A DNA stretch of 54,070 nucleotides, taken from Bacillota bacterium. Its GTDB lineage: Bacteria; Bacillota; Sulfobacillia; Sulfobacillales; JAIMBI01. Location of the stretch: assembly GCA_021818685.1 (NCBI GenBank), contig JAKATP010000006.1:1-54070 (forward strand). Reading direction: 5' to 3'. The notes beneath the pieces are model-generated. The model saw nothing but the letters and a program-made list of their open reading frames with translations. It did not search any database and had not been told where the DNA came from. Positions 326-13,349 of the stretch are shown here, piece by piece (within the stretch, counting starts at the first letter, position 1; every line of letters starts with the position of its first letter). The position numbers and the translations under genes were made by a program.

Positions 326-943
326 TCACAGCCGGAGCCATGTGCCGGCAATGTCCATTCCCAAGGGAACTAACATTATGAGCAGCAGGCCGAATAGCAG
401 CGCGGCGGGCAGCACGGATGCGTAGAGCGGCTGCTTCATCAACGCCAGGCGACGCTCTGCCATGAGCGCCGCCTGCATGCCCCGCGCCTCTTCGAACGCC
501 GCCTCCGGGTCCAGCCCGTCGTGCCACGCCCGATCAATGAGCCGGGCCAGCTGATGCGCTTCGGGCACGGGGTAACGGGCCCGCCACGCGCTAAATGGCT
601 CCGCCGTCCCCGCCGCCAGCGCCGTCAGGACTCCCTCGAGATCGCGCCCGAGCTCTCCTGGGGGGAGCGCGGCCTCCAGCGCCTCTAGCACACCCAGGGT
701 GGCCGTGGCCATAAGCGCCACGGTCTCCCAGTAGCGGGCTAAGGCTAGCCGGCGCGGATACCACGGGCGCCGCTCCGGCCACCACTGGGTCGCGGCCAGC
801 GCAGCTGCTACCAGCGCCGCCGTCCCCTGGTGGTCGACGCCGAGGCCCAGGGCCACGGCCGGCCACGTGAAGCGCCTCCAGCCCGGGGCGAGCCATACTT
901 CCAGCAACAGAACTGCGGCGACGGCTGCGGCCACCGCGTTCAC
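326..943 (-). CDS. TadC-like type II secretion F-domain membrane protein
   Basis: A protein of about 205 residues resembling the second inner-membrane platform protein of Tad/Flp pili (TadC, T2SSF domain). It has an N-terminal hydrophobic segment, a cytoplasmic helical middle with a conserved-looking AWHDGLDPEAAFEEA-like stretch, and a strongly hydrophobic C-terminal segment at about residues 178-198. The GTG start at 943 is chosen because it overlaps the upstream stop as GTGA, which implies translational coupling. An upstream extension in the same frame is hydrophilic and unlikely to be coding. It would form the membrane base on which the CpaF-like ATPase acts. The family call rests on position after CpaF and TadB and on the fold pattern; individual residues are poorly diagnostic. 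Confidence 0.7.
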   Translation of the reverse strand: MNAVAAAVAAVLLLEVWLAPGWRRFTWPAVALGLGVDHQGTAALVAAALAATQWWPERRPWYPRRLALARYWETVALMATATLGVLEALEAALPPGELGRDLEGVLTALAAGTAEPFSAWRARYPVPEAHQLARLIDRAWHDGLDPEAAFEEARGMQAALMAERRLALMKQPLYASVLPAALLFGLLLIMLVPLGMDIAGTWLRL

Positions 944-1611
944 CGTACGCCTCCCAACGGCCACAACACCCACAGCACGGCCGTCTGCACGCCTGCCACC
1001 ACCAGAAGCGTCAAGGTGCCAGGAAGCGTCCGGGTCAACAGGTGAAAGAACACCGGCACCGTGAACCGCAGACCGACCACTGCGACCCACGGCGCCGGCA
1101 TTAAGAGCAGCGCCGTACTCCGTGGGCCGGCGAACGCTGCCTCCAACTGATCCCGCATGGCCCGCTCATCCCGCAGCTGCGCCAGTAGGAGGTCCACCAG
1201 CCGATCGATCCGCCCTCCCCGCCGCACGGCTGCGTGCCACAGCCCTTCCGCATACGGACGCATCCCCGCAGGCATCCTCGCAGCGAGATGGTGAACAGCC
1301 GTGTCGACGTCGGTCACCCCGTGTACCTCAAGCGTGCTTTCCAGGGCGGCTGACACGGGCTGACCTGCCCGGAGCCGCTGACGAAGCCGTCCCAACATCG
1401 CTTCTCCCGCCGCACGGGCTGTCTCATCCAGGGCCCGGTCGGTCCCATAGGCTCGGTACCGATGGATACCGACCCCGGCGACAATGCCGGTCACGGCGAG
1501 TACAGGGCCGCCGATGAGGGCGCCCAACACCCCACCCACAGCGCACTCCCAACCCGCCTCCGCGTAGACGAGGCCCAGGATGGCCACTGCCGCCGTCTCG
1601 GCCCAGGTCAT
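940..1611 (-). CDS. TadB-like type II secretion F-domain membrane protein
   Basis: A protein of about 223 residues with two N-terminal membrane segments (residues about 5-45), a charged helical cytoplasmic domain (about 60-155, including the RLRQRLRAGQPVSAALE pattern typical of T2SSF) and two C-terminal membrane segments. This is the usual layout of TadB, the first platform protein of Tad pili. The ATG at 1611 overlaps the stop of cpaF as ATGA, and the end overlaps the next gene as GTGA. The three genes cpaF, tadB and tadC are therefore one tightly coupled unit. Confidence 0.8.
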   Translation of the reverse strand: MTWAETAAVAILGLVYAEAGWECAVGGVLGALIGGPVLAVTGIVAGVGIHRYRAYGTDRALDETARAAGEAMLGRLRQRLRAGQPVSAALESTLEVHGVTDVDTAVHHLAARMPAGMRPYAEGLWHAAVRRGGRIDRLVDLLLAQLRDERAMRDQLEAAFAGPRSTALLLMPAPWVAVVGLRFTVPVFFHLLTRTLPGTLTLLVVAGVQTAVLWVLWPLGGVR

Positions 1612-2834
1612 GCCTGGGCCACCAGACGGATGCCGTCGGTCTCCCGCACGAAGACCGGGGAGACCCCGTCGGCCCTGATCGCGTCGATCCCGAAGACACC
1701 CCGCCGCCCGCGTTCGTCGCGCGCGAGAAAGACGACCAAGTCTAGGGCCGCCCGGATTTCCTCCAAGAGTGCCGGGTATGGCATGGCAGCCGTGTTGCGC
1801 ATGGCGGCTCGCGCGATGCGATGAATCGTAGCGAGTCCGCCGCCGGGACTGTGCACGGTACACAGAGAACCGGGATGGCCGCTCGCCATAGCCTCGATGA
1901 GATCCAAGGCCTCGCCTCCGCGCACCTCACCCACCACGATTCGATCAGGACGAAGCCGAAGTGCTTGAACAATAAGGTCATGGGTGGAAAAACGCCCCCG
2001 AGCCTCCAGAGCCAGGACTCCATGCCGCGCGAGATTGAGTTCCCGCACATCTTCGATCACCACGAGGCGTTCTAGCGGACCCACCTCGCGCAGGAGAAGC
2101 CGGGCGAGGTGGGTCTTGCCGGTTCCTGCCCCCCCGGCCACGATGATGTTCCGCCGCTTACGCACCGCGTCCACCAGGTAGTCCCAGACCTCGGCGCTGA
2201 GGCTCCCCTGGCGGATCAGGTCGTCGGGTTCGAGTCCCGTATCGTTGGCCCGCCGGATAGCCATCGCTGGATGCTCGCTGACCGGGGGAATGACCAGGGA
2301 GATGCGCGAGCCATCGGCGAGGCGGGCATCAGCCATCGGAGACTCCGAGTTGAGATTTCGCCCACTCCGCGCCGCGAGCCGGAGGGCGAGGGCCAACACC
2401 TCATCGTCATCCACAAAGATGGAGGCAACCGGGTCCAACACCCCGTCGCGCTCCACCATCACATCGTCAAACCGGTTCACCATGATTTCCGTCACACTGT
2501 CGTCTAAGAGCAGGGAGTCAAGCGGTCCGAGCCCCGTCAGTTGATTCACAACCGATCGCCGAATAAGCGGGCGTGCCTCCAGCGCCCGCACTCCTCGTCG
2601 GTCAAGTGCGGCATCTACGGCCTCCCCGAGACGGGCAAGCCGCTCAGGTGTCCAGACCAGGTATCCCACGCGATCGGGGAACGCCGCCTCCACCTCCCGG
2701 GCGACCTCCCGGGTCTCCTCGGGAGGTGCGAAGGGTGTCGTCGCCTCCCGCGCTACCGGGGGCAGGCTCCAGCGCCTGGCGCCATCGTCCTCGCGGCCCC
2801 TTATCTTGCCCTGCTCCTTGCTCTCCCTGGCCAT
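1608..2834 (-). CDS. cpaF: CpaF/TadA (VirB11-type) secretion ATPase
   Basis: A hexameric secretion ATPase of the TadA/CpaF family, about 408 residues, expected to power pilus assembly or secretion at the cytoplasmic membrane. Visible motifs are the N-terminal all-helical domain ending in a LGPLDSLLLDDSVTEIMVN-like stretch, Walker A GGAGTGKTHL, an Asp box near VVIEDVRELN, and the His-box/Walker B region RPDRIVVGEVRG followed by AMASGHPGSLCTVHS. The ATG at 2834 is preceded by AAAGGGG at good spacing. The earlier ATG at 2852 has no ribosome binding site. It lies 28 nt after the CpaE-like gene and overlaps tadB by ATGA. Confidence 0.93.
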   Translation of the reverse strand: MARESKEQGKIRGREDDGARRWSLPPVAREATTPFAPPEETREVAREVEAAFPDRVGYLVWTPERLARLGEAVDAALDRRGVRALEARPLIRRSVVNQLTGLGPLDSLLLDDSVTEIMVNRFDDVMVERDGVLDPVASIFVDDDEVLALALRLAARSGRNLNSESPMADARLADGSRISLVIPPVSEHPAMAIRRANDTGLEPDDLIRQGSLSAEVWDYLVDAVRKRRNIIVAGGAGTGKTHLARLLLREVGPLERLVVIEDVRELNLARHGVLALEARGRFSTHDLIVQALRLRPDRIVVGEVRGGEALDLIEAMASGHPGSLCTVHSPGGGLATIHRIARAAMRNTAAMPYPALLEEIRAALDLVVFLARDERGRRGVFGIDAIRADGVSPVFVRETDGIRLVAQA

Positions 2835-2862
2835 CGTCGACCCCTTTCCCATGCGCTGTTGG

Positions 2863-3822
2863 TCACTTAAGCGCACCCCGGATGCGTGCGAGCAGGACCC
2901 GGCCGAGGCGCCGCCTCCGCGGTAGCGTCTTGCTCGACGCCTGGGGCATCCTTGGCCAGAGCTCGCCAAGCTTTACGACCTCTGGTAGCCCCACGGCATC
3001 GTCGCCCCGATAGCCGAGCACGGCCCCTGGATTCAGGGAGCGGATAGAAAGGAGCGTCTCCCGAACCCGCAAGGGTGCATGTCCGTAACCATCTATCACC
3101 ACGACATCGAGCCGAGCGATCCAGGAGAGGGCCGGTTGGCGGCGAAAGTCTCCGCCGAGGTCCACCACGGCCCAGGGCACCGTGGAGATCAGATCTCCCT
3201 CGCCGACCGTGCCTCTCTCGTCTCCTCCTATTGCCCACGGCGGTGGTGCCGGCAGCAGCTGCCCGGCAGAGAGGGGAAGGGGATGCCCGCCTCCAAAATC
3301 CCAGACCCTTCCCCACACGTGGGCAGCCAACATCTCGGTGAGCCCGCCGCCACTCCAATCGGCATCGACGAGGAGCCCCGGCCCGCGGCGCTGTCCCAGT
3401 CGAGCGCTCCACTGCCAGGCCAGCTCCGCGACGGGCCGCCCGAGACCGAGGATCCCATGGATGCGCGCCTCGGGGGCCAAGTCGTCTGCGAGGGCGATGG
3501 AAGCCATCCAGCGGTTGATATCTTCGTCCGCGATCTCGCCCACGACGGTCTCGGCAACGGCGGAGGTTCGGGCCCACGACGGGGGTGGATCCTGCTCGAT
3601 CCAGAGCAAAACGGGCAGTCCCTGGACCGCCCACGCCTCCACCCGCTCGGGATCGAGACCTGGGAACTCCTGACTGGCCAGGATCGCAACGGCGGCACCG
3701 GAGGTTATGGCCCCCTCCACCTCCGCCACTGACGGTGCCACCAGCGCCCCGGCCTCGAGGAGGGCCTGTCGGAGGGCCTGGTGCGTGGTGGCCACCACGA
3801 TGCCGCGTGCATCGCCGATCAT
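2863..3822 (-). CDS. CpaE/TadZ-like protein with degenerate P-loop
   Basis: A protein of about 319 residues placed where Tad loci carry the MinD-like localisation protein CpaE/TadZ. The N-terminal 100 residues look like a receiver-type alpha/beta domain. The second half has MinD-like strands (GPGLLVDADWSGGGLTEML, VPWAVVDLGGDF, LDVVVIDGYGHAP). At the position expected for the deviant Walker A (KGGxGKT) the sequence reads ILGLGRPVAELA, without the Lys-Thr/Ser, so ATP hydrolysis is unlikely. Some known TadZ proteins are also degenerate. The ATG at 3822 overlaps the CpaB-like stop as ATGA. Assignment is by context plus fold pattern. Confidence 0.65.
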   Translation of the reverse strand: MIGDARGIVVATTHQALRQALLEAGALVAPSVAEVEGAITSGAAVAILASQEFPGLDPERVEAWAVQGLPVLLWIEQDPPPSWARTSAVAETVVGEIADEDINRWMASIALADDLAPEARIHGILGLGRPVAELAWQWSARLGQRRGPGLLVDADWSGGGLTEMLAAHVWGRVWDFGGGHPLPLSAGQLLPAPPPWAIGGDERGTVGEGDLISTVPWAVVDLGGDFRRQPALSWIARLDVVVIDGYGHAPLRVRETLLSIRSLNPGAVLGYRGDDAVGLPEVVKLGELWPRMPQASSKTLPRRRRLGRVLLARIRGALK

Positions 3823-4349
3823 CGTGAGGACCCGACAGTCATGACAACCCAGGTCCCGGAAGGATTCCCATCGTGCTGCACCAAGGCCAGCATCGCGGCA
3901 GACGATCCCGTAACGGTGAGCATCCCTGACAGGGATCCGACTCCTCCACCCGTCGCATCCACCACTGTCACGGGCGGCGAGAGCCATATCCGGCCGTTTT
4001 GGGCCGCACCGAGACGGACAGTTTGCCCCGGATTCAGGTCTTGGGCCGACAGCGTAGTCACAGACACCGAGAGCTCGTCACCCCCCGACCGGCGCCGGGA
4101 ACTTTCGAGACCAGGTCCGATGACCATCCCTGGGACCAGCGGAATCCTGGCCACCGCGTGACCCGTCGGGCTGAAGGTGGAAGGAATCGTCTCGTAACGC
4201 ACGTCGGCAGAGGTGATGGGAGAGCCAGCCGCCACCGGCCGCACTACGACCCAGGCCGAGCCCGGTCCGCGTGATGCCAGGCTCAACGCGGCAAACAGGG
4301 CCGCCGCCACTAGCATCGGCAGAGCCGGTTTCTTAACCCACCCGGGCAT
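3819..4349 (-). CDS. CpaB-like SAF-domain pilus assembly protein
   Basis: A protein of about 176 residues with one N-terminal membrane anchor (residues about 9-24), then a SAF domain whose VVVRPVAAGSPITSADVRYE stretch matches the start of CpaB/RcpC proteins. In Tad systems CpaB is periplasmic or extracytoplasmic and helps the pilus cross the envelope. The ATG at 4349 overlaps the end of the VirB4 gene by 17 nt; earlier in-frame codons lie deeper inside that gene. The coding order VirB4 then CpaB then CpaE then CpaF ties the two halves of the cluster into one operon. Confidence 0.8.
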   Translation of the reverse strand: MPGWVKKPALPMLVAAALFAALSLASRGPGSAWVVVRPVAAGSPITSADVRYETIPSTFSPTGHAVARIPLVPGMVIGPGLESSRRRSGGDELSVSVTTLSAQDLNPGQTVRLGAAQNGRIWLSPPVTVVDATGGGVGSLSGMLTVTGSSAAMLALVQHDGNPSGTWVVMTVGSSR

Positions 4350-5970
4350 GCGCTTCAGCCTCCTGAATGAGTGCGCGCTCCCGCGGGCTCGCGACAATCC
4401 GGATGGGAAGGCGGGATCGGTCCGCCAAGAGGAGTCCCTCACCTACACCCGCCCCCGCCAGCCACTCACGCTCCGGTACCGTGAGATGAAAAAGGCGACT
4501 CCAGTCGGTGAGCGCCTCCGGGTGCGGCTTTAAGAGAAGCACCAGCGGACTGTTCCGGAGGCACACTTCCGCAGCCGCGGTACGCAGTGCGTCATGGGCG
4601 TCCTGAGTGACAAGAACCAGGGTTGTATGCCACTTCCGCGCCCGGCGATAGAGCTCTTCGAGATAGGGAGCCAGGTCAGCGTGCAAGAGCAAGCGCCACG
4701 CCTCATCGAACACCACCCATCGGGGCCGGTTGTCGGGCAGCGTAGCCACCACATATTCCACGGCCGCTAGATATGCTGCCGCCCTCATCCCATCCGGCAC
4801 CGGCGCGAGATCGATGACGGTGAGGCCCGCGTCTGGCAAGGCCCCTTCCCCTTCACCCATCACCGCAATCCAGTGCGCCAACGCAGGGCCAACCCGCTCA
4901 TGAACCTCGGGCAGGTCTCGTGCCAGCATGCCGAGCCAGATGCCGGGCGTGAGGTCGTCAGCGGCATCGAGATGCCGGCTCAGATCGCGACGGATATCCG
5001 GCGCCAGTGTACCCGTCAGCATTTCGACCCAGCGCAGTGCGAAGAGAGACCGGCGGACGCGCTCCGTAGGACTCGGCGCTGTCCAGAACAGGGGATTCAG
5101 TCCGCGCCCCGCGCCTACCTCCACCAATCCGGTCGGGCCGGACAGACCCCGATATTCGCCCTCAGGGTCAATAACGACCACACGTTGCCCATGATAGCGG
5201 GCGCGCAGGATTTGAAGTTTGGTGGCAAAGCTCTTCCCTGCTCCTGACCACGCTGCCGTGAAGCTGTGCGGCGCCGGGAGCAGTCGCCGGTCAATCACGA
5301 TCGGTGACCGCGACAGGGCATTCTCACCCCAGATCTCGCCTCTCGGATCATGACGGTCATCGCCCACCAAGGGAAACAAGGTGGCCGCCGTCGTGGTATC
5401 CATAATCCGTGCGCCACGAATCGGCTCCCCACCGGGGAGCGTCGCCCGCACAGCCGCATCCTGCTGGTAGCGCGCCGTGCCCAGCGGCAGCATGAGGCTC
5501 GCGGCCTGGCTCATGAGGCCGTCCGTTCGCCGGTCGAGCGCGTCTTGGGTCCTCGCACGCAGCAGGAAGGACAGTCCGACCCGCACCATGCGCACGCGGC
5601 CACTCGCAATCTCTCGACGAAGGCGGTCTGCATCCTCCATCGCCTCCAGACGTCCGGCGTCGTAGAGGCGCCCCATGCCTTCCGCGGCGCGCTGAGCTCC
5701 CCGGTTCCAGACCAGTCGCCGATTCAACAGCGTCATCTGTTCCTCGCTGGCGACGGGTGTGAGGACTACGGAAACGGTCAACGCCTCATTGGCAAGAACC
5801 AGGGGCAGCACCCATCCCGGACTCACCTCGCGCGGCCAGCCCCGCACGGTCAGCCCGCGCACAAGCTCGGCGTCCGACGCCACATGATCCGATCGCACCT
5901 CCACCGCGTCTGGCCACAGACTCTCCAGTCGACGTTCCATCTCTATTTCAGCAACAGGCTCGAGTTCCAC
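4333..5970 (-). CDS. virB4: VirB4/TraC-family conjugative transfer ATPase
   Basis: A large type IV secretion ATPase, about 545 residues. Walker A is AAWSGAGKSFATK (about residues 240-250), followed by VVVIDPEGEYRGL; Walker B is RWVVFDEAWRLL, followed by the TLVLVTQDAHD motif typical of VirB4/HerA ATPases. The GTG at 5970 is chosen because AGGGGGTGA lies 7 nt upstream. An in-frame GTG at 6012 and an ATG at 5940 are alternatives without good ribosome binding sites. The start overlaps the preceding TraC-like gene by 28 nt. VirB4 energises assembly of conjugation-type channels, so its presence next to Tad platform genes is unusual. Confidence 0.92.
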   Translation of the reverse strand: MELEPVAEIEMERRLESLWPDAVEVRSDHVASDAELVRGLTVRGWPREVSPGWVLPLVLANEALTVSVVLTPVASEEQMTLLNRRLVWNRGAQRAAEGMGRLYDAGRLEAMEDADRLRREIASGRVRMVRVGLSFLLRARTQDALDRRTDGLMSQAASLMLPLGTARYQQDAAVRATLPGGEPIRGARIMDTTTAATLFPLVGDDRHDPRGEIWGENALSRSPIVIDRRLLPAPHSFTAAWSGAGKSFATKLQILRARYHGQRVVVIDPEGEYRGLSGPTGLVEVGAGRGLNPLFWTAPSPTERVRRSLFALRWVEMLTGTLAPDIRRDLSRHLDAADDLTPGIWLGMLARDLPEVHERVGPALAHWIAVMGEGEGALPDAGLTVIDLAPVPDGMRAAAYLAAVEYVVATLPDNRPRWVVFDEAWRLLLHADLAPYLEELYRRARKWHTTLVLVTQDAHDALRTAAAEVCLRNSPLVLLLKPHPEALTDWSRLFHLTVPEREWLAGAGVGEGLLLADRSRLPIRIVASPRERALIQEAEAHARVG

Positions 5971-6548
5971 GACCAGCTCACCCCCTGTTCCGCCTCGCGC
6001 CCGTTCAGACACGCGAATATGAACCGATAGAGTTCCTCCGTTCCCTGTCGTCTCACCTTGATGCCGATGGGCCGCAAGCCCTCGTCCACCACTGACATCC
6101 TGCGGGCCAACTCCCGCTCAGCCTCCTCCCACAGACCCTCTCCCCTCCGGATGGGACGCGATCGGGTGTCAGTCCCGAGCCACGACAACACGATGTAAAA
6201 ACGCCGGCGCAGGAGGTGTTCGAGATGCTGCGATTCATTGAGAAACCGCAGATAGTCGCCGAGCGCCGGACGTAAATGGGCTTCGAGGTCCGCTTCACGT
6301 GCCTTCATCTCGGCGAGATACTCGTCGAGCCGTACGACATCGGTCTTGATCAGGAGCTGCACCGGGAACGTGAGCCCGTTCAAGAATCGGGCAAAGCCGA
6401 GGATGAGCGCGCGTCGTTCCCGTTCATCCTTGAGGGCAAAACTTACGGGCGATGCTTCCAGGACCGCGAGATAGCGGTCCCGATCCATCAGGCAGAGATC
6501 ACCGCCGATCGCGCGGATTGGAAACAACCTTTGCATGGAGCGGGCCAA
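5943..6548 (-). CDS. TraC-like / VirB4 N-terminal-domain protein
   Basis: A 201-residue soluble protein whose first 80 residues (FPIRAIGGDLCLMDRDRYLA, EASPVSFALKDERERR, FARFLNGLTFPVQLLIKTD) match the TraC-like domain that precedes VirB4 ATPases in Gram-positive conjugation systems. A long helical region follows. The TTG at 6548 is preferred because GAGGTGAT sits 6 nt before it; the ATG at 6536 has no site. It probably works with the adjoining VirB4 ATPase at the membrane. It could also be viewed as the split-off N-terminal half of VirB4, but a separate gene is common in this family. Confidence 0.78.
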   Translation of the reverse strand: MARSMQRLFPIRAIGGDLCLMDRDRYLAVLEASPVSFALKDERERRALILGFARFLNGLTFPVQLLIKTDVVRLDEYLAEMKAREADLEAHLRPALGDYLRFLNESQHLEHLLRRRFYIVLSWLGTDTRSRPIRRGEGLWEEAERELARRMSVVDEGLRPIGIKVRRQGTEELYRFIFACLNGREAEQGVSWSWNSSLLLK

Positions 6549-6616
6549 TCCGAATCACCTCATCTTCCATTGGTCTTGGTCTTCGTATCTGGATGTCTTG
6601 GTATCTTGGTCTGGCT

Positions 6617-6949
6617 TTAGATTTCCCGGCTGTGCGCCTCCGACAAGGCCGTGCTGAGCCCAGTGGCGCCAGCAGCCGACGGAGGACACACATAGACCCG
6701 GGGTGTCACCACGAACCGGCCGAGAAGTCCTATCCAGACATATACGGGCATCTCGTCAAGCCGCAGGTTGGCGCACAGGGTCAGGGATGCGACCACGCCA
6801 AGCATGATCCACCGGTGACTGCCGCCGTGCAGGACTGCCAGCGCCGCCAGAAAGGCTCCTGTCAGCACCACGGCCACGGTTCCCGCCGGGATTCCGAACA
6901 GCACGTTCAATTCATCGGCTAGTGGCAGCGGAATGCGGCGGATCACCAC
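6617..6949 (-). CDS. PrgI-family (VirB3-like) membrane protein
   Basis: A 110-residue protein with two adjacent membrane segments (about residues 22-40 and 46-62), then a DEMPVYVWIGLLGRF...TPRVYV stretch. This is the size, topology and C-terminal pattern of PrgI proteins, the Gram-positive counterparts of VirB3, which sit in front of the VirB4 gene in conjugation modules. The GTG at 6949 overlaps the end of the VirB6-like gene by 7 nt. The family call relies on topology and order more than on sequence identity. Confidence 0.7.
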   Translation of the reverse strand: MVIRRIPLPLADELNVLFGIPAGTVAVVLTGAFLAALAVLHGGSHRWIMLGVVASLTLCANLRLDEMPVYVWIGLLGRFVVTPRVYVCPPSAAGATGLSTALSEAHSREI

Positions 6950-7719
6950 AGCACCAGCCGCGGACGGACCTGGGACCCCAGACCCATGAGGCGCCGGAAC
7001 TCACCGGGCACCATGACCATGAACCAGAGTGACCCGGCCGCAAACAGGAGCTCCGACAGGCTTCCCGCCGTCCCCATGTACTGAACCGCGAGCCACCATG
7101 CCGTCGCCTGCAGCGCCTGGGTAAGCGTGAGCGCCACAAGCTCCCGCACCTGCACGCCGAGCCGCCCGTCGTCGCCGCTCACGAGCCACCACAGCAGAAA
7201 CCAGGGGATAAGGCCAGCGAGCCACACGATGTGGATAAGACGCGTGACGTAGAGAAGGCTCAGGTAGGTCACGATAATCAGCAGAATGACCAGCAGGGCC
7301 AGAAGCCAGAGAGGCGCTGAGGCCAGCATCCCTGGTGAGAAGGTTCCCGACGGCACCCTCATGGGGTTCACGAACGCACTCACGATTCGGTTGTTCAGGA
7401 AGAACAGGAGGCGAAGTGCGGCCGGCTCCATCGCCATCAGACCTGCTGCCGCCACGGCCCGCACCAGGATACCGCTTGTGAACTCGGGGCGGCCGTAGCC
7501 GACGAGCCCTGGCCACAGAGCCCTCACGCCGGCCAGGATGACGGCCGCACCCGTTCCCGCCAGTGCCACGCTCCGCGACGCACCCACGAACGCAGACGCG
7601 GCCGGTAGAAGCGCGAGAGGTCGGAACACGACCAGCTGCAGGAGTGTGGCGGCACCCCCGAGCACGAGGTGGAGCAAGCTTCCGACCACAAGGTTCAGGA
7701 GACTCAGCACGGGGTTCAC
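6943..7719 (-). CDS. VirB6/TrbL-like polytopic membrane protein
   Basis: A protein of about 258 residues with several long hydrophobic segments and few charges, including a paired NNRIVSAFVNPMR loop and a broad C-terminal block ending in GEFRRLMGLGSQ. Topology and position between a VirB2-like pilin and a PrgI-like protein match TrbL/VirB6, the membrane core of conjugation channels. The GTG at 7719 overlaps the pilin stop as GTGA. The longer in-frame extension upstream is Arg-rich and overlaps the pilin gene, so it was excluded. Confidence 0.7.
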   Translation of the reverse strand: MNPVLSLLNLVVGSLLHLVLGGAATLLQLVVFRPLALLPAASAFVGASRSVALAGTGAAVILAGVRALWPGLVGYGRPEFTSGILVRAVAAAGLMAMEPAALRLLFFLNNRIVSAFVNPMRVPSGTFSPGMLASAPLWLLALLVILLIIVTYLSLLYVTRLIHIVWLAGLIPWFLLWWLVSGDDGRLGVQVRELVALTLTQALQATAWWLAVQYMGTAGSLSELLFAAGSLWFMVMVPGEFRRLMGLGSQVRPRLVLW

Positions 7720-7949
7720 GAGGCAATAAACTGGAGAAGGCTCCGAACGACACCGACCATGAGCACGAGGAGCAGCCCAACCGCTGCCCGCATCATCACA
7801 CTTTTGGCCGCTTCTACACTCCGTGGCGAGCTTGCGACCATGTACCGCACGCCTCCGTAGACCATAACCAGGGTAAACAGTCCCCCCGAAATGGTCACGA
7901 GCAGACTCGTCAGTCGCGCAATGACGGCCACCATCTGGGTATCCGGCAT
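7716..7949 (-). CDS. VirB2/TrbC-like pilin subunit
   Basis: A 77-residue protein with two membrane helices (about residues 12-35 and 52-72) separated by a short loop carrying GGVRYMVASSPRSVEAAKSVMMRAAVG. This two-helix layout with a glycine-containing first helix and a small charged loop is characteristic of VirB2/TrbC pilins of Gram-positive and archaeal systems, which may lack a classical signal peptide. The ATG at 7949 has GAGGAGG at ideal spacing. It is the first gene of the operon, so its product would be made in excess, as expected for a pilin. Confidence 0.75.
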   Translation of the reverse strand: MPDTQMVAVIARLTSLLVTISGGLFTLVMVYGGVRYMVASSPRSVEAAKSVMMRAAVGLLLVLMVGVVRSLLQFIAS

Positions 7950-8137
7950 GGCCCCTCCTCGTCGCGCACATCTACGCAACGCTTGCATGATAAGGAGGGG
8001 GAGGGCAATTTTTCGTGTCAAAGTTGACGAGACGTCTAATGCCTTGCCATATGGCAAGGTGCTTGGGGACGCCAAAGGTGCGGGCATTCGACACGATTCG
8101 ATGTTTTTACCCAGATTGCGGGTCCGGCGCCAGCGTT
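7950..8137 (-). promoter_or_regulatory. Leader region of the secretion/pilus operon
   Basis: This 188-nt gap separates the thioesterase stop from the pilin gene. It holds a perfect 18-bp palindrome (8042-8059), a small palindrome AGACGTCT (8030-8037), and an inverted repeat GTCAA-AG-TTGAC (8017-8028). A minus-strand TTGACA at 8016-8021 and a TATCAT at 7987-7992 are present but are 23 bp apart, too far for a normal sigma-A promoter. The cluster of symmetric elements suggests control by a dimeric regulator; this is inference. Confidence 0.4.
8042..8059. repeat. Perfect 18-bp palindrome upstream of the pilin gene
   Basis: CCTTGCCATATGGCAAGG is its own reverse complement over all 18 bases. It lies 93-110 nt upstream of the pilin ATG. 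No T-run follows, so a terminator is unlikely. It fits an operator for a homodimeric DNA-binding protein or a strong cruciform. No other copy was noticed in this window. Confidence 0.6.
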
Positions 8138-8599
8138 CTAAGAAGGCCGCCTGGCGCGCCGCGAAAGTCTTTCCCGACGACGGTCCTCTGCTTCCTGGAA
8201 GCGCGCCTGCTCCTCAGCCGTTGTCAGGACCAGCGGGGGGATCTCGACAGGCCGGCCGGCATCATCAATAGCCACGAAGGTCAGGTAGGCGGTGCTGGTC
8301 TTGGTTAAGGTGCCCAGCACCACGTCGTCGCAGAATACATTCACCTCCACCTCCATGGAGGTGCGACCCACCCAGTTCAGATGTGCTTTCAAACGGATGA
8401 CCTGCCCGACTCGAATGGGATGCCGGAAGTCCACGCTGTCCATTGACGCCGTAACGGCGACACGGCCCGCGTGCCGGGCCGCGGTGATGGCGCCGGCGAG
8501 GTCGATGAGGTGCATGACCCGGCCGCCTAAGATATGTCCCAGCATGTTGGAGTCGTTCGGCAGTACGAGCTCGGTCATCTCCGTCCGGCTCTGGTCCAC
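8138..8599 (-). CDS. Acyl-CoA thioesterase, hotdog fold
   Basis: A 153-residue acyl-CoA thioesterase of the YciA/BACH hotdog family, hydrolysing acyl-CoA to free acid and CoA in the cytoplasm. Typical features are the N-terminal NDSNMLGHILGGRVMHLIDLAGAITA stretch with its conserved Asp, the ASMDSVDFRHPIRVGQVIRL strand pair, and a charged helical tail. The GTG at 8599 was used; an ATG at 8578 is possible, but its GGACGGAG motif lies too close. It follows the 52-residue membrane microprotein by 11 nt and may share its transcript. Confidence 0.88.
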   Translation of the reverse strand: MDQSRTEMTELVLPNDSNMLGHILGGRVMHLIDLAGAITAARHAGRVAVTASMDSVDFRHPIRVGQVIRLKAHLNWVGRTSMEVEVNVFCDDVVLGTLTKTSTAYLTFVAIDDAGRPVEIPPLVLTTAEEQARFQEAEDRRRERLSRRARRPS

Positions 8600-8610
8600 C
8601 GTCTTGCCGA

Positions 8611-8769
8611 TTAGCGCGCCCGTGACGATCCCTCCCCGCCTGACTCATCTTGCCCGATGTCCCGCCGGCGCTCCTCGCGCTCCATCTGATAGCCCTTCTG
8701 GATGAGCCAGAAGGTGAAAAATAGCCCGAGGCCGCCAATCACCACGAGGAACCACAAAAACAGACTCAC
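8611..8769 (-). CDS. 52-residue single-span membrane microprotein
   Basis: A short gene not obvious from length alone. It has a GTG start at 8769, a GAGGGGG motif upstream, and a stop at 8611. The product has one hydrophobic helix (residues 2-23, rich in Leu, Phe, Trp and Gly) and a highly charged tail (MEREERRRD then DESGGEG), the layout of small inner-membrane proteins with a cytosolic tail. Its start overlaps the stop of the RNA methyltransferase gene as GTGA, a coupling used throughout this window, which supports real translation. Function unknown. Confidence 0.65.
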   Translation of the reverse strand: MSLFLWFLVVIGGLGLFFTFWLIQKGYQMEREERRRDIGQDESGGEGSSRAR

Positions 8770-10136
8770 GTCTCCCCGTCCCCCTCTAGCGGCTCCATCA
8801 CCAGCACGGTCTCGACGTGGTCGGTACGCGGGAAGAGGTCAACGGGTGTGACGTGAGTCACGCGGTAGCTCGACAGCCGCGCCACATCGCGGGCCAGGGT
8901 CTCCGGGTCGCAACTGACGTAAATAATCTTGGATGGTGACGCCACGCTGAGTGCAGCCGCCACCTCCGGCTTGATGCCGCTCCTCGGTGGGTCCAGAACC
9001 ACAATATCCGGACGGTAATCGTGCGCCACCAACGCGGGGAAAACCACCTCCACCGCGCCTGGCCGGAACTCGATCCCAGACCCGTTCTGAAGGGCGCTCC
9101 GCCGCCCATCCGACACCGCTGCCCGGGAGGCTTCGATCGCCAGCACCCGGTACCCTTTGTGCGCCAGGAGGCTGCCCATCACCCCTACCCCGGCGTAGAG
9201 ATCAGCGGCTCGCATCCCGGGTCCGGGGCCGATTTCCTGTGCCACGACCTCGAGCAGCACTTCCGCCTGGGGAGGATTCACCTGGAAGAACACATCGGCC
9301 CCGAGAACAAACGACATGCCGGCCAGATTCTCCCGCAACTCCGGGTCACCGGTCAGTGTGGTGGCGGGGCCACCGAGGATACGATTCGTGCGATCGGCAT
9401 TAATGCTCAGCGCCACGCCCTTCAGGTGCGGAACCCGTCGCATAAGCTCACGGCCCCACTCCATGAAGCGCGGGTCGCGGCGGCTGGCCACCAACAGCAC
9501 CACCGTGCGCGCCTCGGCCGTGCTCACCCGGGCCACCAGGTGACGGAGGAGACCACGATCCTCGCTTTCCTGGTAGGGCTCCAGGCGGAACTGATTGGCC
9601 GCCTCCACGGCTCCCCTCAGCACTTCATCCAGAAGCGGGTCCTGGACCAAGCACTGGTCGGTGTTCACCACCTCGTGGGTGCCGCGCCGGAACAGACCCA
9701 GTCGTGCCGAGCCCGGCCCTCCCGTCCATACGAAGGAGGCTTTGGAGCGGTAACGGTACGGGTACGACGGCGCCCTTACCGGCTCCACCCGGACACTGGT
9801 GAGTCCCCCGATGCGGTGGAGGGCGTCTTCTACCCGTCGGCGCTTGTACTCGGTCTCGGATTCGTAGCTCCAGTGCTGCAGGGTGCACCCACCGCACTCA
9901 CGATAGATGGGACACGGCGCAAGCCGCCGATCCGGAGCATGGGAGGCCAATGCGGTCATCACGGCACGGGCGTACCGCTGGTGCTCCTCCACCACCGTGG
10001 CCTGAACGGTCTCCCCAGGGAGGGCACCGGCAATGAAGACGACCCGCCCATCAGGGAGGCTGGCGACCCCCTCCCCATCGCGGCCCATGCGCTCGATGCG
10101 GAGGAGAAGGCTTTCGGACGACGATGAGTCGCTCAT
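8766..10136 (-). CDS. rlmCD: 23S rRNA uracil-C5 methyltransferase (RlmCD/TrmA family)
   Basis: A 456-residue SAM-dependent RNA m5U methyltransferase. It has an N-terminal TRAM domain (residues about 8-60), a 4Fe-4S cluster motif with Cys in PCPIYRECGGCTLQHW, a SAM-binding domain around ADLYAGVGVMGSLLA, and the motif VLDPPRSG followed by YVSCDPETLARD with the catalytic Cys. In Bacillus the related gene (YefA/RlmCD) also follows gatB, which supports 23S rRNA rather than tRNA as target. It overlaps gatB by ATGA and the microprotein by GTGA. Confidence 0.92.
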   Translation of the reverse strand: MSDSSSSESLLLRIERMGRDGEGVASLPDGRVVFIAGALPGETVQATVVEEHQRYARAVMTALASHAPDRRLAPCPIYRECGGCTLQHWSYESETEYKRRRVEDALHRIGGLTSVRVEPVRAPSYPYRYRSKASFVWTGGPGSARLGLFRRGTHEVVNTDQCLVQDPLLDEVLRGAVEAANQFRLEPYQESEDRGLLRHLVARVSTAEARTVVLLVASRRDPRFMEWGRELMRRVPHLKGVALSINADRTNRILGGPATTLTGDPELRENLAGMSFVLGADVFFQVNPPQAEVLLEVVAQEIGPGPGMRAADLYAGVGVMGSLLAHKGYRVLAIEASRAAVSDGRRSALQNGSGIEFRPGAVEVVFPALVAHDYRPDIVVLDPPRSGIKPEVAAALSVASPSKIIYVSCDPETLARDVARLSSYRVTHVTPVDLFPRTDHVETVLVMEPLEGDGET

Positions 10137-11599
10137 TGCGAGCCTCCCCCAGTGAGACGCTCACGCAGCAACCGGTTTGCGACGGCCGGTTCCGCCTGTC
10201 CCCGCGTCGCCTTCATCACCTGGCCGACCAGGTACGCCAGTGCCTTTTCCTTGCCGGTACGAAAATCCTCAGCCACCTTGGCATTCTCGGCTATCACTCT
10301 CTCCACAATGGCGGTCAGCGCCTGGACATCCGACACCTGCCGGAGACCCCGCGTCTCCACGATGACGTCGGGATCCTGGTCATTGTCGTACATGGCCTCT
10401 AGGACCTCTTTCGCCATGCGCCCCGACAGCCTGCCATCCTGCACCAAAGCGAGCAGCCGGGCGAGCCGCGGGGCTGTCAGTGGACCCTCTCCATAAGGCA
10501 GGTGATGGGCGTTTTGCAGGCGCGCCACATCGCCCAAGATCCAACTCACAGCCTCGGGAAAGGGAGCACCCTGCGCATGCACCGCGTCCGTGAAACGGAC
10601 GAGCGCAGGATCGGAGACCAGTACCTCCGCATCCTGGGCCCGCACGCCATACTCCGCCATCCTGGCGGCCCATGCGTCCGGCAGCATCGGGAGCGCGTCT
10701 CGGACCCCATCCACCCACGCCGCCTCCAACATCAACGGCGGCAGATCCGGCTCCGGAAAGTAGCGGTAGTCGTTGGCCGCTTCCTTACTCCGCTGCGAGA
10801 GCGTGGTGCCGCTCGCGTCATCGAAGCCCCGCGTCTCGCGCATGACGGGGCGCCCGGCGTCCAGCAGGGCCGCCTGCCGTTCAATCTCATATTCAAGGCC
10901 GCGGACCACACTCCGAATCGAGTTCAGATTCTTGAGCTCCACCCGCGGGATGTCCTCCAGATCGCCTTCGAAGTCCGCAGGCTTCAACGAGATGTTGGCG
11001 TCACAGCGCAGCGAGCCTTCCTCCATTCGCAGATCCGATACATCCAGGTAAGCGAGGGTACGGATGAGGCTGTGAAGGTAGAGCCGCCCGTCTTCAGGCG
11101 AGCGCATATCCGGCTCGCTCACGATCTCGATCAGGGGAATACCAGCCCGGTTGAAGTCGACCAGGGAGCTTTGCGCCGTCCAAAGATTCTCCCCCTCGTG
11201 GTTGAGCTTGCCGGCTTCCTCCTCGATATGGATGCGCCGGATTCGCACCTGACGGGAGGTGCCGGGGAGGGCCACGGCTCCCCGCTCCGCCAGGGGATGA
11301 TCAAACTGTGAGATCTGATACCCCTTCGGCAGGTCGGCGTAGAAATAATTCTTACGGTCAAATCGCGACAGCAGATTGATCCGGCACCCTAACGCCAGGG
11401 CTGCCCGGACGGCCAGGTGGACCGCCCCCTGGTTCAGGGCCGGCAGCACCCCCGGATGCCCCAAGCACACGGGACAGATAGATGTATTGGGTGCGGCGCC
11501 GAAGGCGGTCGGACACGGGCAGAAGAGCTTGGTCGCCGTCTTCAACTCGACATGCACCTCGAATCCGATGATCACCTCGGCCCCGTTGTCCAGGATCAT
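10133..11599 (-). CDS. gatB: Asp-tRNA(Asn)/Glu-tRNA(Gln) amidotransferase subunit B
   Basis: GatB, 488 residues, the kinase/tRNA-binding subunit of GatCAB, which converts Glu-tRNA(Gln) to Gln-tRNA(Gln) (and Asp-tRNA(Asn) where needed). The start GFEVHVEL, the zinc-type Cys pairs in LFCPCPTAFG and CPVCLGHPG, the YFYADLPKGYQISQ motif, DFNRAGIPLIEIVSEPD and the C-terminal YqeY-like tail (MKATRGQAEPAVANRLL) are all present. It is full length. ATGA overlaps join it to gatA upstream and rlmCD downstream. Confidence 0.97.
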   Translation of the reverse strand: MILDNGAEVIIGFEVHVELKTATKLFCPCPTAFGAAPNTSICPVCLGHPGVLPALNQGAVHLAVRAALALGCRINLLSRFDRKNYFYADLPKGYQISQFDHPLAERGAVALPGTSRQVRIRRIHIEEEAGKLNHEGENLWTAQSSLVDFNRAGIPLIEIVSEPDMRSPEDGRLYLHSLIRTLAYLDVSDLRMEEGSLRCDANISLKPADFEGDLEDIPRVELKNLNSIRSVVRGLEYEIERQAALLDAGRPVMRETRGFDDASGTTLSQRSKEAANDYRYFPEPDLPPLMLEAAWVDGVRDALPMLPDAWAARMAEYGVRAQDAEVLVSDPALVRFTDAVHAQGAPFPEAVSWILGDVARLQNAHHLPYGEGPLTAPRLARLLALVQDGRLSGRMAKEVLEAMYDNDQDPDVIVETRGLRQVSDVQALTAIVERVIAENAKVAEDFRTGKEKALAYLVGQVMKATRGQAEPAVANRLLRERLTGGGSQ

Positions 11600-13059
11600 G
11601 CCGCCCCCCCTTCCTTCAGGTCGGGGGCCGGCATCGGTGCCGCCGCCCGCTCAATGGCGCGCCCGATCCGGAACAGGAGCGGTTCGGACAGCCGCGGGCC
11701 CACGACCTGAACCGCGGTCGGGAGTCCCTCTTGAAGACCGACCGGCACCGACAGGCCGGGCAGGCCAGCCAGGTTGAGGGACACCGTATAGAGGTCTGAG
11801 AGATACATCCGCCACGGATCGGACAACCGTTCGCCAAGGGGGAACGGACGGTCGGGGGTGGTCGGGCACACGATCGCGTCGACCCGTTCAAAGATCCGGT
11901 CGTACCCATCGGCGATCGCCTTGCGCACCGCCGTAGCGCGTCCGTAATACGCGTCGTAATAGCCGGCCGACAGCGCGAAGGTCCCCAGCATGATGCGATT
12001 CTTCACCTCAGGGCCGAACCCGGCCGCACGGGTTTCATCGTAGAGTGCGTATAGACCTTCGGCTTCCTTCCGCTTTCCGTAGCGCACGCCATCGTACCGG
12101 GACAGATTGGAAGAGGCCTCGGCCGGTGCGATGACATAATAGGCTGCCAGTGCGCGGGTCGGATCAGGAAGGTCCACCGACACGAGACGGGCACCGGCGT
12201 CTGCTAGTGCACGCGTCATGTGATCAAGGGTTGCCCGCACCACGGGGTCCACGCCCTCGGGGTAGGACGACAATATGCCCAGGCGGAGCCCTCTCACCGA
12301 AGCCTCGTCGGATACGTCGGGCGGAGGCTCTCGCAAGGACGTCTGGTCACGCGGATCAAATCCCGCCATCACCCGCAACAACACCGCCGCATCGTCTACC
12401 GTCCGCGTGATCGGGCCCACCTGATCCAGTGAAGAGGCAAAGGCGATAAGCCCATAGCGCGACACCCGTCCATAGGTAGGAAGGAGTCCCACGACCCCGC
12501 AGTAAGCCGCCGGCTGGCGGATGGACCCGCCGGTGTCCGACCCGAGCGCGGCGAGACTAAGACGTCCCGCGACGGCAGCCGCCGAACCCCCGCTTGACCC
12601 CCCCGGTACACGAGTGGGGTCCCAGGGGTTCAGCGTGGGCCCATACGCGGAGTGTTCGGTCGAGGACCCCATCGCAAACTCATCCAGATTGGTCTTGCCC
12701 AGCACGATCGCCCCTGCCCGCTCCAGGCGCTCCACGACCGTCGCGTTATAGGGCGCGCGGTACCCTTCCAGGATGCGCGATCCCGCCGTCGTCGATCCCC
12801 GATCCATCACCAGATTGTCCTTGACCGCCACCGGCACCCCATACAAGGGGAGCCTATCACGCTCTGACGCCGACAGCGCGTCAAGCTCGTGCGCACGCTG
12901 AGTGGCCGACTCCTCCAAAACTTCCAGCAAGATATGGTAGGGGCCATTGAAACGGCCGATGCGGGACAGGTAAGCGCTCACGAGTTCACTCGTCGACACG
13001 CTCCCGCTTCGAGTGGCGCGAACGGCCTCGGTGAGCGTTAAATCGAGCAGGCCGCTCAT
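11596..13059 (-). CDS. gatA: Glutamyl-tRNA(Gln) amidotransferase subunit A
   Basis: GatA, about 487 residues, the amidase subunit that releases ammonia from glutamine or asparagine for GatB. The Ser-cisSer-Lys catalytic set is visible: Lys in VPVAVKDNLV, the two Ser in GGSSGGSAAAVAG and the nucleophile in GSDTGGSIRQPAAYCG. The ATG at 13059 overlaps the gatC stop as ATGA and begins MSGLLDLTLTEA, the normal length; a longer in-frame opening into gatC was rejected. Confidence 0.97.
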   Translation of the reverse strand: MSGLLDLTLTEAVRATRSGSVSTSELVSAYLSRIGRFNGPYHILLEVLEESATQRAHELDALSASERDRLPLYGVPVAVKDNLVMDRGSTTAGSRILEGYRAPYNATVVERLERAGAIVLGKTNLDEFAMGSSTEHSAYGPTLNPWDPTRVPGGSSGGSAAAVAGRLSLAALGSDTGGSIRQPAAYCGVVGLLPTYGRVSRYGLIAFASSLDQVGPITRTVDDAAVLLRVMAGFDPRDQTSLREPPPDVSDEASVRGLRLGILSSYPEGVDPVVRATLDHMTRALADAGARLVSVDLPDPTRALAAYYVIAPAEASSNLSRYDGVRYGKRKEAEGLYALYDETRAAGFGPEVKNRIMLGTFALSAGYYDAYYGRATAVRKAIADGYDRIFERVDAIVCPTTPDRPFPLGERLSDPWRMYLSDLYTVSLNLAGLPGLSVPVGLQEGLPTAVQVVGPRLSEPLLFRIGRAIERAAAPMPAPDLKEGGAA

Positions 13060-13349
13060 ATATCCTGCACGATTCGGGGCACGACAAATTGTCCTGCCCG
13101 GGTATTGGGGCCCAGCGCCAGCAGCCGTCCAGAATCTTGGATCGGGCACGGCCGGTCCTCTCGCAGTCTGGCTAACACATTGATGCGATCCGTCGAGAGC
13201 GGCCGCTCGCCCGCCATCTCGTCTCCCAAGACTTCCATGTGCCCCAAGACTGAGGACAGCACCTCCACCATCCGCTCACGTTCCTGCGGAGTCAGGCGCA
13301 CTCGCGCCAATGCCGCTACATGCTCCACGTCCTCGTGGCTCAACCGCAT
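13056..13349 (-). CDS. gatC: Glutamyl-tRNA(Gln) amidotransferase subunit C
   Basis: GatC, 97 residues, the small belt subunit that wraps GatA and GatB together. The N-terminus LSHEDVEHVAALARVRLTPQE is the family hallmark, and the C-terminus (RLREDRPCPIQDSGRLLALGP) matches the usual LREDEV...LLANAP region with a somewhat divergent tail. First gene of the gatC-gatA-gatB-rlmCD run, joined to gatA by ATGA. Transcription may start in the gap after the oppF terminator. Confidence 0.95.
   Translation of the reverse strand: MRLSHEDVEHVAALARVRLTPQERERMVEVLSSVLGHMEVLGDEMAGERPLSTDRINVLARLREDRPCPIQDSGRLLALGPNTRAGQFVVPRIVQDI

What the first reader, a model, noticed from the sequence alone, without database searches (positions are those of the whole stretch)
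326..7949. Hybrid of conjugation-type T4SS and Tad pilus machinery in one operon
Ten consecutive minus-strand genes encode a VirB2-like pilin, VirB6/TrbL-like, PrgI/VirB3-like, TraC-like and VirB4 components, followed by CpaB-, CpaE-, CpaF-, TadB- and TadC-like components. Standard T4SS lack TadB/TadC platforms, and standard Tad systems lack VirB4, VirB6 and PrgI proteins. Overlaps and short gaps tie all ten together. No relaxase or VirD4-type coupling protein is visible, and the flanks are housekeeping genes, so this may be a domesticated DNA-uptake, DNA-export or adhesion machine. A precedent in spirit is the domesticated VirB2/VirB4/VirB6 set used for archaeal DNA import.
Basis: partly seen in the sequence, partly recalled or inferred. 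Interest (0 to 1): 0.82.

Follow-up and report, generated by a model that had tools for sequence, protein, structure and literature searches.

The report
Domesticated conjugation-plus-pilus motor operon
An entire order of acid-loving bacteria keeps, at a fixed place on its chromosome, a ten-gene machine that joins the DNA-transfer channel of conjugative plasmids to the motor of a different pilus; because the order also lacks the standard DNA-uptake gene comEC, it may exchange chromosomal DNA by a tamed conjugation apparatus.

Summary
Ten same-strand genes (326-7949) encode a VirB2-like pilin, VirB6, PrgI/VirB3, VirB4, CpaB, CpaE, CpaF/TadA, TadB and TadC. One correction: the 'TraC-like' and 'VirB4' genes are two halves of one split VirB4. 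Orthologues occur in 40 of 42 genomes of the order (15 genera, 3 families, Sulfobacillus included), mostly at the same address (gatAB-trmA-thioesterase), and the VirB4 tree follows the rpoB tree. The operon is vertically inherited, not an integrative element.

No VirD4 or relaxase is nearby. However, 35 of 42 genomes carry a single-copy chromosomal VirD4-like ATPase, next to a Replic_Relax (MOBC-relaxase family) gene with a conserved PD-(D/E)xK-like motif in every pair read. ComEC is absent from all 42 genomes but present in 78 of 107 sampled relatives in the class.

My reading: a domesticated conjugation machine moving chromosomal DNA, with a Tad motor in the role of VirB11, a bacterial counterpart of archaeal Ced/Ted. 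Function and direction are inferred, not shown. Mobile T4SS+TadA/B/C hybrids on Sulfobacillus plasmids are already published, so this is a new variant of a known kind; I found no description of the order-wide chromosomal system.

The parts
7716..7949 (-). VirB2-like T4SS pilin, 77 aa, no obvious signal peptide
   Evidence: PF18895 1e-8 over cut-off; orthologues in all complete loci read
6943..7719 (-). VirB6/TrbL-like polytopic membrane protein, 258 aa
   Evidence: TrbL_4 in 13 relatives, best 6e-8; fold matches TrwI/VirB6, Z 11.3
6617..6946 (-). PrgI/VirB3-like membrane protein, 109 aa
   Evidence: PrgI PF12666 in 7 relatives, best 6e-7 over cut-off; hhalign to plasmid PrgI E 5e-6
5943..6548 (-).
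   Evidence: aligns to columns 44-217 of single-chain VirB4; TraC_F_IV 0.002
4333..6012 (-). VirB4 C-terminal half with Walker A and B, up to 559 aa (an ATG at 5940 is an alternative start)
   Evidence: NF045971 2e-52; columns 235-797 of single-chain VirB4, E 2e-69; GxGKS and DE invariant in 22 sequences
3819..4349 (-). CpaB/RcpC-like SAF-domain protein, 176 aa
   Evidence: SAF in 11 relatives, best 4e-5; TIGR03177
2863..3822 (-). CpaE/TadZ-like degenerate ParA-family protein, 319 aa
   Evidence: GGxGTTT in two family members, lost in the window copy; weak ParA/CpaE matches
1608..2852 (-). CpaF/TadA secretion ATPase (VirB11 superfamily), 414 aa
   Evidence: T2SSE 2e-34, TIGR03819 7e-65; Walker A GK[T] and GEVR invariant in 19 copies
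940..1611 (-). TadB-like inner-membrane platform protein, 223 aa
   Evidence: T2SSF 4e-6 over cut-off
326..943 (-). TadC-like inner-membrane platform protein, 205 aa
   Evidence: T2SSF in 6 relatives; position after TadB in relatives
8138..13349 (-). Conserved chromosomal neighbours upstream: thioesterase, small ORF, TrmA-like methyltransferase, GatB, GatA, GatC (address marker, not part of the machine)
   Evidence: at least one of thioesterase, trmA, gatB or gatA upstream of the operon in 16 of 20 relatives

Best explanation
A domesticated, chromosomally encoded conjugation machine that moves chromosomal DNA between cells. Shown by sequence: a Gram-positive-type T4SS core (VirB2 pilin, VirB6, PrgI/VirB3, split VirB4) followed by a Tad motor block (CpaB, CpaE, CpaF, TadB, TadC), vertically inherited throughout the order; and at a second fixed locus a VirD4-like ATPase next to a Replic_Relax/MOBC-family protein with a PD-(D/E)xK-like motif. 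Inferred: the nuclease and VirD4 select and feed single-stranded chromosomal DNA; VirB6, VirB3 and VirB4 form the inner-membrane channel; the VirB2-like pilin makes the contact filament; CpaF with TadB/TadC supplies the VirB11-like energy source that Gram-positive T4SSs otherwise lack and powers filament extension or retraction; CpaB and CpaE scaffold and place the apparatus. Direction is not established; I lean to donor-side export in kin mating because VirD4 and the nuclease are retained.
For: Operon and component identities. VirB4 orthologue in 40/42 genomes, mostly at one address, tree congruent with rpoB. Walker residues of VirB4, CpaF and VirD4 invariant. VirD4-like orthologue in 35/42 genomes, 28/30 of the good ones, single copy; Replic_Relax neighbour in 26/26 read, with conserved PD...E.D...K residues. 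MOBC relaxases are PD-(D/E)XK nucleases (PMC12857230) and PF13814 is MobC (PMC5357655). The VirD4-like gene is never found without VirB4; both are missing together in two genomes. The CpaF-TadB-TadC block is kept even where it has moved away.
Against: No function has been tested. The VirD4/Replic_Relax pair is at another locus, and its link to the operon is only co-occurrence (p 0.02, not corrected for kinship). No oriT was sought. No VirB8-like or wall-hydrolase gene is in the operon, and no Tad-type pilin accompanies the Tad motor, so how a filament crosses the wall is unexplained. The Replic_Relax matches cover mainly the second half of the profile and several are just under cut-off. CpaE lacks a recognisable Walker motif in most members.
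Confidence: 0.47

Rival explanations
1. A DNA importer that replaced ComEC: pilus extension and retraction by CpaF/TadBC draws in free or donor DNA, and VirB6/VirB4 carry a strand into the cytoplasm, as proposed for archaeal Ced.
For: ComEC 0/42 in the order against 78/107 of sampled genomes elsewhere in the class. Outside the order this VirB4 type is in 22/29 ComEC-negative but 7/78 ComEC-positive genomes. Two ComEC-less families nested among ComEC-positive ones keep pilin-VirB6-PrgI-VirB4, with ssb in five of six loci. Ced (VirB2/B4/B6) and Ups (type IV pilus) play the same two roles in thermoacidophilic archaea (PMC9905601, PMC11868833).
Against: VirD4-like and Replic_Relax-like genes, export components, are retained. 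The ComEC association rests on about three independent changes and is not significant after correction for kinship; some of the VirB4-positive genomes carry mobile elements. ComEC is also lost in many bacteria without any replacement.
Confidence: 0.27
2. A contact or adhesion pilus, or a protein-secretion machine, built from conjugation and Tad parts without DNA transport.
For: Precedent for T4SSs that only make pili or secrete proteins (Bartonella Trw, Ptl; PMC12857230). Tad motors usually make adhesive pili. No DNA-processing gene lies in the operon itself.
Against: Most genomes already have a separate canonical Tad locus. No effector or adhesin genes travel with the operon in relatives. The conserved VirD4/Replic_Relax pair would be unexplained.
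Confidence: 0.2
3. Part of an ordinary or decaying integrative conjugative element.
For: Mobile T4SS plus CpaF/TadB/TadC hybrids exist in the same order (PMC6803676).
Against: Same address in most genomes of three families, vertical tree, no relaxase in the neighbourhood of relatives, intact catalytic residues, and VirB4 and CpaF clades different from the mobile ones.
Confidence: 0.04
4. Two unrelated operons (T4SS and Tad) that merely lie next to each other.
For: In seven relatives the CpaF-TadB-TadC block is displaced.
Against: CpaB and CpaE stay directly behind VirB4 in all loci read. The displaced CpaF is kept and still belongs to the hybrid CpaF clade. T4SS with CpaF recurs in other lineages and in mobile elements.
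Confidence: 0.02

Closest known systems
Archaeal Ced and Ted DNA-transfer systems (Sulfolobales, Thermoproteales; PMC9905601)
   Same: Chromosomal, vertically kept VirB2/VirB4/VirB6 set derived from conjugation; Sulfolobales also pair it with a type IV pilus machine (Ups); thermoacidophile hosts
   Different: Bacterial lineage; PrgI/VirB3 present; VirB4 split; Tad motor in the same operon; VirD4-like and MOBC-family genes retained. Sequence homology with Ced was not tested
Sulfobacillus plasmids pL15/pY0017 and the Kr1 integrated element (PMC6803676)
   Same: T4SS plus MinD/CpaE-like, CpaF, TadB/TadC in one system, in the same order
   Different: Mobile, with MOBP-type relaxase and TraG; VirB4 and CpaF belong to other clades
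Gram-positive conjugation operons (pCF10/CD1110 type)
   Same: Gene order pilin-VirB6-PrgI-VirB4 is the same
   Different: No VirD4 or wall hydrolase in the operon; VirB4 split; Tad block added
PAPI-1 of Pseudomonas aeruginosa (chimeric T4P/VirB4/VirD4; PMC12857230)
   Same: DNA transfer that needs a type IV pilus machine together with VirB4 and VirD4
   Different: Mobile island, diderm host, complete T4P with pilins, not a domesticated operon
Helicobacter ComB
   Same: T4SS used by the cell itself rather than by an element
   Different: ComB hands DNA to ComEC, which is absent here; no Tad motor; no VirD4

Membership tests
Type IV secretion system (T4SS) | VirB4 ATPase with intact Walker motifs | tested here: met
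Type IV secretion system (T4SS) | VirB6 and VirB3/PrgI membrane channel parts | tested here: met
Type IV secretion system (T4SS) | VirB2-type pilin | tested here: met
   PF18895 1e-8
Type IV secretion system (T4SS) | VirD4 coupling protein (in conjugative members) | tested here: met
   not in the operon; separate chromosomal locus in 35/42 genomes; its partnership with the operon is not shown
Type IV secretion system (T4SS) | Wall hydrolase (VirB1/NlpC/M23) beside VirB4 | tested here: not met
   none among the ten genes; present in plasmids and mobile hybrids. Many T4SSs work without a linked one, so this does not exclude membership
Conjugation system | Relaxase | tested here: inconclusive
   Replic_Relax/MOBC-family protein at a second locus with PD...E.D...K residues; activity unknown, several matches just under cut-off
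Integrative and conjugative element | Relaxase or integrase in the neighbourhood, variable insertion site | tested here: not met
   conserved address in 16 of 20 relatives, vertical tree; integrases were not searched by profile
Tad/Flp pilus system | TadA/CpaF ATPase with TadB and TadC platform | tested here: met
Tad/Flp pilus system | Flp pilin, TadE/TadF and prepilin peptidase in the locus | tested here: not met
   none among the ten genes; one prepilin peptidase elsewhere in most genomes, canonical Tad locus elsewhere
Ced/Ted-like domesticated DNA importer | Chromosomal VirB2/VirB4/VirB6 set inherited vertically | tested here: met
Ced/Ted-like domesticated DNA importer | Transfers chromosomal DNA | not testable with these tools
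   needs mating or uptake experiments
ComEC-dependent natural transformation | ComEC channel | tested here: not met
   0/42 genomes; controls positive in 10/14

The most novel reading that the evidence does not exclude
A whole bacterial order has lost ComEC and exchanges chromosomal DNA through a domesticated, two-locus conjugation machine in which a Tad motor does the work of VirB11. Related ComEC-less families of the class independently keep smaller domesticated T4SSs with ssb, which would make this a recurrent bacterial alternative to natural transformation and a convergent counterpart of the archaeal Ced/Ups pair.
Probability: 0.33. Interest if true: 0.92.

Novelty: new variant of a known kind. 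Interest (0 to 1): 0.76.

Why it matters
By the account of the authors who described Ted, domestication of conjugation machinery for cellular DNA transfer had not been reported outside archaea (PMC9905601). A vertically inherited bacterial version in an order without ComEC would be a further route of gene exchange besides transformation and plasmid conjugation, and would show how industrially used acidophiles could exchange genes. It would also show that a Tad ATPase can serve a Gram-positive T4SS, a class said to lack VirB11 universally (PMC12857230). It can be tested with gene deletions in cultured Sulfobacillus.

Tried and rejected
Ordinary integrative element: rejected by address and tree. 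Descent from the mobile Sulfobacillus hybrids: not supported, as the CpaF and VirB4 clades differ. The Tad half as the genome's only Tad pilus: rejected for most genomes, because a canonical Tad locus exists. Structure of the VirB4 N-half was too poor to use (pLDDT 46). A phylogeny-aware test of ComEC loss against T4SS had too few independent events. A shared operator between the two loci was sought: an 18-bp palindrome upstream of the operon was not found upstream in relatives nor in the few own-genome loci read. My first search with VirB6 failed because of a frame error (start taken at 7717 instead of 7719); corrected. A solved-structure sequence search with the VirB6 profile gave nothing. 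Literature on domesticated T4SS in Firmicutes: no hit in the open-access library; subscription papers could not be searched.
Full report
Observation. The window is one whole contig of a 3.09-Mb draft genome, and the finding sits at its left end. Ten minus-strand ORFs from 7949 down to 326 form one operon-like unit: 4-bp overlaps at pilin/VirB6, VirB6/PrgI, CpaB/CpaE, CpaF/TadB and TadB/TadC, 17 bp at VirB4/CpaB, and gaps of 10-68 bp elsewhere. The window's own proteins reach curated models for the pilin, VirB4, CpaF and TadB. VirB6, PrgI and TadC pass only through relatives, and CpaE remains the weakest call. For VirB6 the predicted structure, though only pLDDT 61, has R388 TrwI/VirB6 as its five best Foldseek hits (none individually significant) and matches it at Z 11.3 over 221 residues, with the best unrelated chain at 7.8.

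One correction of anatomy. Profile alignment puts the 'TraC-like' ORF on columns 44-217 and the 'VirB4' ORF on columns 235-797 of single-chain VirB4 from Gram-positive plasmids. They are two halves of a split VirB4. The split is found in the relatives read, and similar splits occur in other Bacillota elements. The order pilin-VirB6-PrgI-VirB4 is that of Gram-positive conjugation operons, which carry VirD4 upstream and continue with a wall hydrolase. Here CpaB-CpaE-CpaF-TadB-TadC follow instead.

Conservation. The VirB4 orthologue is found in 40 of 42 genomes of the order, in all 15 genera. A profile search over the class gives more than 660 bits in 39 of these (fragments in the fortieth, which is 61% complete) and at most 367 bits outside the order. 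Genome G027 has exactly the 3,317,203-bp chromosome published for Sulfobacillus thermotolerans Kr1 (PMC6803676), which ties the order to Sulfobacillus. Of 22 copies examined, the window included, 13 have the whole set in a row, two are cut by contig ends, and in seven the CpaF-TadB-TadC block has moved: a few kb away in three, and 24-32 kb away or on another contig in four Sulfobacillus genomes. At least one of gatA, gatB, trmA and the thioesterase gene lies upstream in 16 of 20 relatives from three families; several of the rest are short contigs. The VirB4 tree has one 100/100 clade whose family-level branching agrees with rpoB. The hybrid CpaF is likewise one 100/100 clade, apart from the order's canonical Tad CpaF and from the CpaF of mobile elements. 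Nucleotide-binding residues of VirB4 and CpaF are invariant. This is a vertically inherited chromosomal machine under constraint.

The missing conjugation parts exist elsewhere. A search for VirD4 gave, besides element-borne copies, a weaker ~490-aa protein in most genomes. With its own profile this protein is single copy in 35 of 42 genomes and in 28 of 30 good ones. It has hydrophobic N-terminal segments and intact Walker motifs. In all 26 genomes read it is followed on the same strand, usually with a short overlap, by a protein of the Replic_Relax family (PF13814 7e-6 in this genome) that keeps a PD...E.D...K pattern. A phosphomannomutase gene lies just upstream in 14 of the 26 stretches, from three families; several other stretches are too short to show it. 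PF13814 corresponds to MobC relaxases (PMC5357655), and MOBC relaxases belong to the PD-(D/E)XK superfamily (PMC12857230). That this pair serves the operon is inference from co-occurrence: both in 35 genomes, VirB4 alone in 5 (four of them under 90% complete), VirD4-like alone in none, neither in 2.

Setting in the cell. ComEC, which the transformation literature calls required in all competent bacteria (PMC12455585, abstract), is absent from all 42 genomes but present in 78 of 107 sampled genomes of the same class outside the order. Among those 107, this VirB4 type occurs in 22 of 29 ComEC-negative and 7 of 78 ComEC-positive genomes. Two ComEC-negative families, nested among ComEC-positive ones on the rpoB tree, keep a minimal pilin-VirB6-PrgI-VirB4 set, and ssb accompanies it in five of the six loci read. 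The raw association is strong (Fisher 3e-11), but a kinship-aware test finds only about three independent changes and cannot reach significance, and part of the VirB4-positive genomes carry mobile elements. I treat it as a lead, not a result.

Precedents. Hybrids of T4SS with CpaF and TadB/TadC were noted on Sulfobacillus plasmids pL15 and pY0017 and in the integrated element of strain Kr1, with relaxase and coupling protein (PMC6803676). I found the same kind in plasmid and integrated elements of this order and in MobL-relaxase elements of other Bacillota, plus another hybrid without adjacent VirD4 or relaxase but with an M23 peptidase and a TadE-like gene (L088, L089). T4SS and Tad parts have therefore probably been joined more than once. 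What seems undescribed is the order-wide domesticated version with its separate VirD4/Replic_Relax pair. [quoted passage not shown] a 2025 review says Gram-positive T4SSs universally lack VirB11 (PMC12857230). Only open-access papers could be searched, so an earlier description elsewhere is not excluded.

Verdict. Anatomy, conservation and vertical descent are shown. A DNA-transfer function is the best-supported inference (0.47 for conjugation-like transfer, 0.27 for import), with adhesion or protein secretion as the main alternative (0.2). It is a T4SS by membership. It is not a Tad pilus system, since no Tad pilins accompany it, though it appears to work with a Tad-type motor.

Noticed in passing
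window 8042-8059: Perfect 18-bp palindrome CCTTGCCATATGGCAAGG about 90 bp upstream of the pilin start, a possible operator; not found upstream of the operon in relatives.
   Followed up: partly
L134-L137, L149, L150 (families f177, f172 of the class): Minimal pilin-VirB6-PrgI-VirB4 clusters among housekeeping genes (thiamine genes in L136/L137), with ssb in five of six and no relaxase, VirD4 or Tad genes, in ComEC-negative families: a second domesticated T4SS.
   Followed up: partly
L088 8143-18599 and L089 (genus g28): Another hybrid in distant Bacillota: pilin, VirB6, PrgI-like ORF, split VirB4, M23 peptidase, CpaB- and CpaE-like ORFs, CpaF, TadB, TadC, then a TadE-like and a further small ORF; no VirD4 or relaxase adjacent.
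   Followed up: partly
L038 102-4583 (genome G007): Second, near-identical but frame-broken copy of the pilin-VirB6-PrgI-VirB4 part, about 12 kb from the first copy: a recent decaying duplicate or an assembly problem.
   Followed up: no
L066 16492-19089, L067 11496-14090 (Sulfobacillus): The hybrid-clade CpaF-TadB-TadC block has moved next to cobalamin-biosynthesis-like genes, 24-32 kb from the T4SS part, yet is retained.
   Followed up: partly
L102 (and partly L093): Mobile elements with MobL relaxase, VirD4, split VirB4, M23 peptidase, CpaB-, ParA/CpaE-like and CpaF genes followed by small TadE/TadF-like membrane ORFs: mobile T4SS-Tad hybrids outside Sulfobacillus.
   Followed up: partly
G000:C58 (L068): Canonical Tad locus fragment (CpaB-, CpaE-, CpaF-, TadE-like) cut by a contig end in the window's own genome; the close relative G006 shows only the hybrid CpaF.
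   Followed up: no
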